The notes under the pieces were generated by a model that was not told where the DNA came from, did not search any database, and saw nothing but the letters and a program-made list of their open reading frames with translations. A DNA stretch of 64,000 nucleotides, from contig NZ_CP058910.1 in the NCBI RefSeq assembly GCF_013415885.1, forward strand, positions 62,001-126,000, read 5' to 3'. This stretch comes from Halosimplex rubrum. Lineage in GTDB: Archaea > Halobacteriota > Halobacteria > Halobacteriales > Haloarculaceae. Both the position numbers and the translations under genes were made by a program. This document shows positions 8,318-54,333 of this stretch, piece after piece (positions within the stretch are counted from its first letter, which is position 1; each line of letters begins with the position of its first letter).

Positions 8318-8401
8318 TATCGTAGAATTTGAAAGACATCGCCCGGATGACCGCACGCGGTCGTGCGGTCGACCGTGCAAACGCTTTCAAATTCTCCGAT
8401 A
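8318..8401. repeat. Covarying palindromic element, family H copy 1
   Basis: An 84-base structure. The outer arms tatcgtagaatttgaaag (8318-8335) and ctttcaaattctccgata (8384-8401) pair at 17 of 18 positions. The 48-base interior contains a perfect hairpin, gaccgcacg (8349-8357) with cgtgcggtc (8362-8370). The copy at 53554-53635 has an interior of identical length with the same 22-base hairpin, but completely different outer arms that also pair. It lies between the CPBP protease and the lipoprotein gene. The rest of the 8296-8746 gap is pyrimidine-rich with no recognisable gene. Confidence 0.8.
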
Positions 8402-53469: not shown

Positions 53470-53553
53470 CGCCGCCGGCTTGGGTCACCACCGGCAAGTG
53501 CCTGGCGGGTTCGGGCGAAGACACGGCTGCCGGGCCGACCTCGTCGCCGACTC

Positions 53554-53635
53554 ATACGGATTAGTGCAAGACATTCCGGGATCGACCGCACGCGGTCGTG
53601 CGGTCGACCCGGTAAACGCTTGCACTAATCCATAT
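53554..53635. repeat. Covarying palindromic element, family H copy 2
   Basis: Outer arms atacggattagtgcaag (53554-53570) and cttgcactaatccatat (53619-53635) pair at 16 of 17 positions. The 48-base interior contains the same 22-base hairpin as copy 1, between shared acat and aaacg flanks. Its last base is the first base of the regulator's TGA (53635-53637), so it is the 3' flank of that gene. The arms share no sequence with those of copy 1. Confidence 0.8.
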
Positions 53636-54333
53636 CAGACCGCCGGACCGACCTCGTCGAGGGCGGCGTCGGCGAGCTTCGCCTCCGCCCTCCGGAGGTG
53701 TTCGCCGGCGGTCTGGGCCGAACAGCCCAGCACGGCGGCCACGTCGGCGTGTGTCGCCTCCCGCGGGTGCTCGTAGTAGCCCAGCTCCGTCGCGACGACC
53801 AGCGCCTCGCGCTGGCGGTCGCTCAGCGACCCGTCGGCGGACTCGCTCGCGGCCGGCGTCGAGGAGATCTCGTCGATCCGGACGTCGATATCGTCGCCCC
53901 GGCGCTCGAAGGCGGTCTGGAGCGGCCCGGGGTCGCCGACGATAGTCGCGTGGATCGCCCCCTCACGGAACACCACGGGCGTCCGAACGATCAGCCCGCC
54001 CGATTCGAGCGCGCCGGCGAGGCACCCGAAGATCGGGACCGCCGACCGTTCGACGCGGAGGAGGACGCGAGGGGCCGCGCCGTCGGCGTCGTCGCCGGCT
54101 CCACCGGCTCCCTGGCCGGTCGTCTCACAGCGCTCGACCCCGGAGGTGTCGAGGGCGGCGTCGACCAGGGGCGCGGGGTCACCGTCCACGGCGAGGAGGA
54201 TCATCGCCTCGTCGGCGACGAGGTTCCAGTCGATCACGCGGGCGCGGTCGACGGCGGCCGCGTTCGCCAGCCGGTCGAACAGCGGCGGCGCCCGCGAGCC
54301 GTCAACGCTTGCGGTGACGCGGACGTGTTTCAC
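53635..54333 (-). CDS. Bat-type (bacterio-opsin activator) HTH regulator
   Basis: 232 aa from a GTG at 54333 (MKHVRVTASVDG). A ~170-residue N-terminal GAF-like domain of the bacterio-opsin-activator family (IVRTPVVFREGAIHATIVGD), then the HTH_10: LSDRQREALVVATELGYYEHPREATHADVAAVLGCSAQTAGEHL region, and a short end. The family regulates haloarchaeal stress or metabolic genes. It is divergent from the ABC exporter gene at 54421; a related regulator lies at 56518. Confidence 0.9.
   Translation of the reverse strand: MKHVRVTASVDGSRAPPLFDRLANAAAVDRARVIDWNLVADEAMILLAVDGDPAPLVDAALDTSGVERCETTGQGAGGAGDDADGAAPRVLLRVERSAVPIFGCLAGALESGGLIVRTPVVFREGAIHATIVGDPGPLQTAFERRGDDIDVRIDEISSTPAASESADGSLSDRQREALVVATELGYYEHPREATHADVAAVLGCSAQTAGEHLRRAEAKLADAALDEVGPAV

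What the first reader, a model, noticed from the sequence alone, without database searches (positions are those of the whole stretch)
8318..8401. Intergenic palindrome whose outer stem changes completely between copies yet stays paired (family H)
Copies at 8318-8401 and 53554-53635 share a 48-base interior with an identical 22-base hairpin and conserved acat...aaacg flanks. Their 17-18-base outer arms have unrelated sequence, but each pairs with its own partner. Such compensatory change over an entire stem is the classic mark of selection on folding, so this is a candidate structured RNA, or a palindromic mobile element of REP/PATE type whose arms copy or contact the local site. Two copies in 64 kb suggest many in the genome.
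Basis: partly seen in the sequence, partly recalled or inferred. Interest (0 to 1): 0.72.

Follow-up and report, generated by a model that had tools for sequence, protein, structure and literature searches.

The report
Haloarchaeal palindromic mini-transposon, probably IS630-driven
The two matching hairpins are copies of an 80-base gene-less jumping element found in most genera of this salt-loving archaeal family; their outer arms differ because they are the end-tags of two sub-families, probably read by different IS630-type transposases, rather than evidence for a structured RNA.

Summary
In detail: both hairpins are where stated, share a core, and have different outer arms that each pair with their own partner. 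The interpretation changes. The genome (a Halosimplex relative) holds 17 copies: 15 with 8318-type arms, 2 with 53554-type arms, so arms are sub-family specific, not locus specific. The element proper is 80 bp: 16-bp terminal inverted repeats (TIRs) tipped by TA around a conserved core, CGACCGCACG-N4-CGTGCGGTCG. It is mobile: 130 copies carry exact 3-bp target duplications (TGA or TCA), one interrupts a transposase gene whose relatives are intact, and both window loci are empty in sister species. Type-A copies are flanked by TA in CTAG-like sites. Elements with the same end rules are IS630-family: two identical copies in this genome end TA|TAGTA...TACTA|TA; others end TNA|TA(C/G)...|TNA. Best reading: a MITE moved in trans by IS630 transposases, like pneumococcal RUP; not a PATE, REP or proven RNA. 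Paired arm changes are what two binding sites for one transposase produce. Open: why the core outlasts arm changes, and why many haloarchaeal IS630 elements duplicate TNA when the family is described as TA-only.

The parts
8320..8399 (+). type-A copy of the 80-bp element, arms TCGTAGAATTTGAAAG / CTTTCAAATTCTCCGA
   Evidence: absent at the orthologous site in G093
8318..8319 (.). left TA, presumed 2-bp target duplication
   Evidence: 2-bp remainder at the empty site of G093, (there CG, not TA)
8400..8401 (.). right TA, presumed 2-bp target duplication
8320..8335 (+). left TIR arm, type A
8384..8399 (-). right TIR arm, type A
8349..8370 (+). conserved core hairpin GACCGCACG-CGGT-CGTGCGGTC
53555..53634 (+). 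type-B copy of the 80-bp element, arms TACGGATTAGTGCAAG / CTTGCACTAATCCATA
   Evidence: absent at the orthologous sites in G092 and G093
53552..53554 (.). left TCA, 3-bp target duplication
   Evidence: a single TCA at the empty sites of G092 and G093
53635..53637 (.). right TCA, 3-bp target duplication
53555..53570 (+). left TIR arm, type B
53619..53634 (-). right TIR arm, type B
53584..53605 (+). conserved core hairpin, identical to copy 1

Best explanation
[quoted passage not shown] Each copy is 80 bp of non-coding DNA: two 16-bp TIRs, normally beginning TA, short internal loops, and a strongly conserved central palindrome. A transposase of the IS630 (Tc1/mariner-like) family encoded elsewhere binds both TIRs, cuts the element out and inserts it at a new site, duplicating the target. 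The duplication is TA (CTAG-like sites) for TIRs starting TAGTAG, and TNA (CTNAG-like sites) for TIRs starting TACGG or TAGTG. Different arm sequences are TIR sub-families matched to different transposases, so the two arms of a copy change together. Shown: dispersed copies, TIRs, target duplications, empty sites, and IS630 elements with the same tip and duplication rules, including two identical copies in this genome. Inferred: that those IS630 proteins move this element, and that arm pairing reflects protein binding rather than folding. The role of the core is not established.
For: Copies: 17 loci in the genome; 78 of 146 family genomes, 19 of 22 genera. Target duplications: 20 of 20 Halomicrobium copies have exact TGA or TCA; 130 family-H copies have exact TGA/TGA or TCA/TCA. 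Empty sites: a copy in a transposase gene, with ungapped relatives once 80 bp plus one TGA are removed; the 53554 site has a single TCA in G092 and G093; the 8318 site is empty in G093. Partner: two identical 1,055-bp IS630 elements in this genome with TAGTA... ends and TA duplications in CTAG. IS630 elements with TNA duplications: L363, L381, L386, and L365 with perfect 18-bp TIRs, TCA/TCA and an intact transposase at 241 bits over a cut-off of 100; also L375, L376, L382, L387. Control: of 30 PF01609 (IS4/IS5-type) loci only 1 showed such ends, and there they belong to a MITE that the IS interrupts. Precedent: pneumococcal RUP with IS630-Spn1 (PMC2229807).
Against: TIR similarity between MITE and IS630 is moderate: by inspection 11 of 16 for type A, and for type B mainly the first 5 bases in the nearest case. 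No IS630 was found by PF13358 in some genomes rich in copies (e.g. G091, G095). At the 8318 empty site G093 reads CG where TA is expected (two transitions). Core conservation (column entropy 0.08-0.53 bits, against up to 1.7 in the arms) is not needed for TIR binding.
Confidence: 0.85

Rival explanations
1. A structured RNA (small RNA or cis-regulatory element) under selection for folding.
For: 35-pair stem with two-sided changes at 14 pairs, 0 of 500 shuffles as high; symmetric changes also in the core, e.g. A-T to C-G.
Against: Explained by TIR symmetry; 130 copies with target duplications at unrelated sites; window loci empty in relatives; no Rfam match above threshold. Perfect palindromes can also be restored by template switching, a mutational route to 'compensatory' change (general knowledge).
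Confidence: 0.05
2. PATE or other IS200/IS605-type element, or a REP moved by a RAYT, i.e. single-strand hairpin transposition.
For: Strong hairpin; haloarchaea carry many PATEs (PMC3119063).
Against: PATEs lack terminal inverted repeats and target duplications (PMC3119063); here both are present.
Confidence: 0.02
3. MITE moved by a DDE transposase of another family that duplicates 3 bp, such as the IS5/IS1031 group, with the IS630 resemblance coincidental.
For: TNA duplications are described for IS1031-type elements (general knowledge); IS630 TIRs match type-B arms mainly at the tip.
Against: 30 PF01609 loci gave no element of their own with such ends, whereas most intact IS630 loci did; type-A TIR and TA-in-CTAG duplication match the resident IS630.
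Confidence: 0.08

Closest known systems
RUP (repeat unit of pneumococcus), 107 bp, proposed to be mobilised by IS630-Spn1
   Same: Short non-coding repeat with TIRs tipped by TA, intergenic bias, insertion into transposase genes, proposed IS630 transposase (PMC2229807)
   Different: Archaeal, 80 bp, highly conserved central palindrome, two TIR classes with TA or TNA duplications; no sequence relation expected
Haloquadratum MITEs and small mobile repeats (SMR-A about 110 bp; SMR-B, one family 80 bp)
   Same: Short transposase-free haloarchaeal repeats with prominent inverted repeats (PMC3119063)
   Different: SMRs are reported without target duplications and without a related transposon; SMR-A targets palindromes of PATEs and IS605-type elements; here TA/TNA duplications and IS630-like ends
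PATEs (palindrome-associated transposable elements)
   Same: Haloarchaeal, palindrome-bearing, transposase-free
   Different: PATEs lack TIRs and target duplications and are tied to IS605-type transposons (PMC3119063)
ERIC and Correia/NEMIS elements
   Same: Palindromic non-coding mobile repeats with TIRs, target duplications and TA at the termini (PMC2229807)
   Different: Bacterial, other sequences, no TNA class described there

Membership tests
MITE (non-autonomous TIR element) | Short, non-coding, TIRs at both ends | tested here: met
   80 bp with 16-bp TIRs in 154 copies
MITE (non-autonomous TIR element) | Target-site duplication | tested here: met
   130 copies with exact TNA duplications; TA inferred for type A
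MITE (non-autonomous TIR element) | Empty sites in relatives | tested here: met
MITE (non-autonomous TIR element) | Mobilised in trans by a transposase | not testable with these tools
   needs a transposition assay
IS630-mobilised MITE | TIR tips shared with an IS630 element of the same genome | tested here: met
   type A: TAGTAG tip, 11 of 16 by inspection against L361/L372
IS630-mobilised MITE | Same target-duplication rule as the IS630 partner | tested here: met
   TA in CTAG for type A; TNA for type B as in L363, L365, L376, L381, L386
IS630-mobilised MITE | Close type-B TIR match to an IS630 in the same genome | tested here: inconclusive
   Halomicrobium IS630 shares TACGG and TNA only; no PF13358 match in G091 or G095
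PATE / IS200-IS605 | No TIR, no target duplication, near-terminal palindromes | tested here: not met
   TIRs and target duplications present
Structured RNA family in Rfam | Covariance-model match at the gathering score | tested here: not met
   only a tRNA in the window; sub-threshold miRNA hits
Structured RNA | Transcription of the element | not testable with these tools
   no expression data available

The most novel reading that the evidence does not exclude
The conserved core is itself the unit under selection: a DNA or RNA hairpin that keeps spreading by exchanging its end-tags, so that it can be carried by two IS630 groups with different target rules (TA-duplicating and TNA-duplicating), while the same end-tags also carry other cores and even a two-gene cargo. 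In this view the TNA-duplicating haloarchaeal IS630 group departs from the 'TA only' rule of the Tc1/mariner/IS630 family.
Probability: 0.3. Interest if true: 0.6.

Novelty: new member of a known kind. Interest (0 to 1): 0.42.

Why it matters
It explains a set of palindromic repeats scattered through most genera of one haloarchaeal family and gives them a likely mover. It shows that whole-stem compensatory change is not by itself proof of a structured RNA. It points to IS630-type elements with 3-bp TNA duplications, whereas IS630/Tc1/mariner transposition is described as exclusively into TA (PMC2170065). A search of the held papers for IS630, MITE and haloarchaea together found none.

Tried and rejected
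Arms copying the local site: rejected, arms are shared by copies at unrelated sites. PF01609 transposases as partner: 30 loci, none with its own matching ends. The wHTH-DUF7509 unit as autonomous partner: rejected, the same gene pair occurs in many haloarchaea without TIRs. Viruses and plasmids: no exact core match in viral contigs, no phage match for the A copy, no PLSDB plasmid match for the B copy. Intergenic bias: 28 of 133 junctions fall in a coding-like frame against 318 of 665 nearby control positions; a crude GC3 test, only indicative. Literature searches for the core string and for haloarchaeal IS630 MITEs gave nothing on point.

Full report
OBSERVATION. The two hairpins are present. 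The pattern AGACAT...AAACGCTT occurs at just these two places in the window and in none of 100 shuffles; the 22-base core is identical; both fold far better than shuffles (z -5.6 and -9.0). Exact limits are 8320-8399 flanked by TA, and 53555-53634 flanked by TCA.

COPIES. The window is part of a single-contig 4.48-Mb genome (G000). Its genus includes a genome whose contig length equals that of Halosimplex pelagicum R2 (G093). A covariance model built from 16 copies finds 17 loci in this genome. Fifteen have arms like TAGTAGAATTTGAAAG (type A, including 8318) and two have TACGGATTAGTGCAAG-like arms (type B, 53554 and C1:3912547). The arms are therefore tied to sub-family, not to locus. In the sampled species the arms differ but pair, while the core CGACCGCACG-N4-CGTGCGGTCG persists.

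COVARIATION. On 16 copies the structure has 90.9% paired cells and 14 pairs changed on both sides, against 5.0 in shuffles.

MOBILITY. Twenty of 20 copies fetched from two genomes of genus g8 (one of them, G059, has the contig lengths of Halomicrobium katesii DSM 19301) are flanked by exact 3-bp repeats, TGA or TCA, with unrelated sequence beyond. Over all fetched copies 130 have exact TGA or TCA repeats, with a preferred CTNAG-like site (flank counts). A copy in G059 splits a transposase gene; homologous genes in G001, G059 and G060 run through ungapped when 80 bp and one TGA are removed. The 53554 site reads a single TCA in G092 and G093. The 8318 site is empty in G093, with 2 bp (CG) in place of TA-80 bp-TA. 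Both window copies are thus insertions absent from relatives.

PARTNER. A scan for TIR pairs with TNA repeats turned up an IS630-type element (L277). Searching 21 genomes for PF13358 gave IS630 elements with the same end rules. This genome has two identical 1,055-bp copies ending TA|TAGTAACCGTTAGAA...TTCTAACAACTACTA|TA in CTAG sites, whose two overlapping frames both match the IS630 model over its cut-off. Others have TNA repeats: L363, L381, L386 in G059 (TGA; the protein scores 88.8, under the cut-off of 100), L365 (TCA, perfect 18-bp TIRs, intact 340-aa transposase at 241 bits), L376 (TGA, 114 bits), L375 (TTA), L382 and L387 (TCA). The repeat length follows the TIR start in both MITEs and most IS630 elements: TAGTAG goes with TA; TACGG, TACTG, TAGTG, TAGGG mostly with TNA. 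Exceptions are L383 and L390, which start TACTGA and were scored with TA. Of 30 PF01609 loci one scored, and there the ends are those of a MITE interrupted by the IS.

MODULES. In Halomicrobium the same TIR (TACGGAAAGTTGTAG) also bounds a 79-bp element with a different core, GTGAGCGTC...GACGCTCAC, and a closely similar TIR bounds a 1.1-kb unit carrying a winged-helix gene and a DUF7509 gene, with TCA repeats, at the same place in two species. That gene pair is common in haloarchaea without TIRs, so here it looks like captured cargo. Further short families with the same tip and TNA rule occur.

INTERPRETATION. The best reading is a MITE family moved by IS630-type transposases, as proposed for RUP and IS630-Spn1 in pneumococcus (PMC2229807). 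PATE membership fails because TIRs and target duplications are present (PMC3119063). Shown: copies, TIRs, duplications, empty sites, IS630 elements with matching tips and rules. Inferred: the actual transposase, and the reason for arm pairing. Unexplained: the core is the most conserved part although TIRs should suffice for transposition, and IS630-family elements are described as inserting exclusively at TA (PMC2170065) whereas many here show TNA.

LIMITS. Type-A duplications rest on flanks and one imperfect empty site. TIR matches to IS630 are partial. No expression or transposition data were available. ISfinder was not searchable, so whether TNA-type IS630 elements are already catalogued is unknown.

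Noticed in passing
L303:1498-2631 (G060) and L310 (G059:C2, near 2481): TIR- and TCA-bounded 1.1-kb unit with a winged-helix gene and a DUF7509 (PF24349) gene and no transposase; same position in two Halomicrobium species.
   Followed up: partly
L281-L309 (G059, G060): A second 79-bp MITE family with the same TIRs but a different core hairpin, also with TNA duplications.
   Followed up: partly
L363, L365, L375, L376, L381, L382, L386, L387: IS630-family elements flanked by 3-bp TNA repeats instead of the TA described for this family.
   Followed up: partly
L377:1353-2545 (G001): An IS630-type element with GAGTGGTC ends sits in the core loop of an H-type copy.
   Followed up: partly
L055:1501-1530 (G000:C1:4134304): Half copy of a type-A element: right arm and part of the core only.
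   Followed up: no
L003 (G000:C1:269154-269255): Copy with a short extra stretch between core and right arm.
   Followed up: no
L093, L149 (G001); L188, L199, L226, L255 (MAG QH_10_67_22): Other short repeats with TACTGCCGGCTGTAAC or TACGGTCGTGCGTAAC ends and TNA repeats, likely related MITE families.
   Followed up: no
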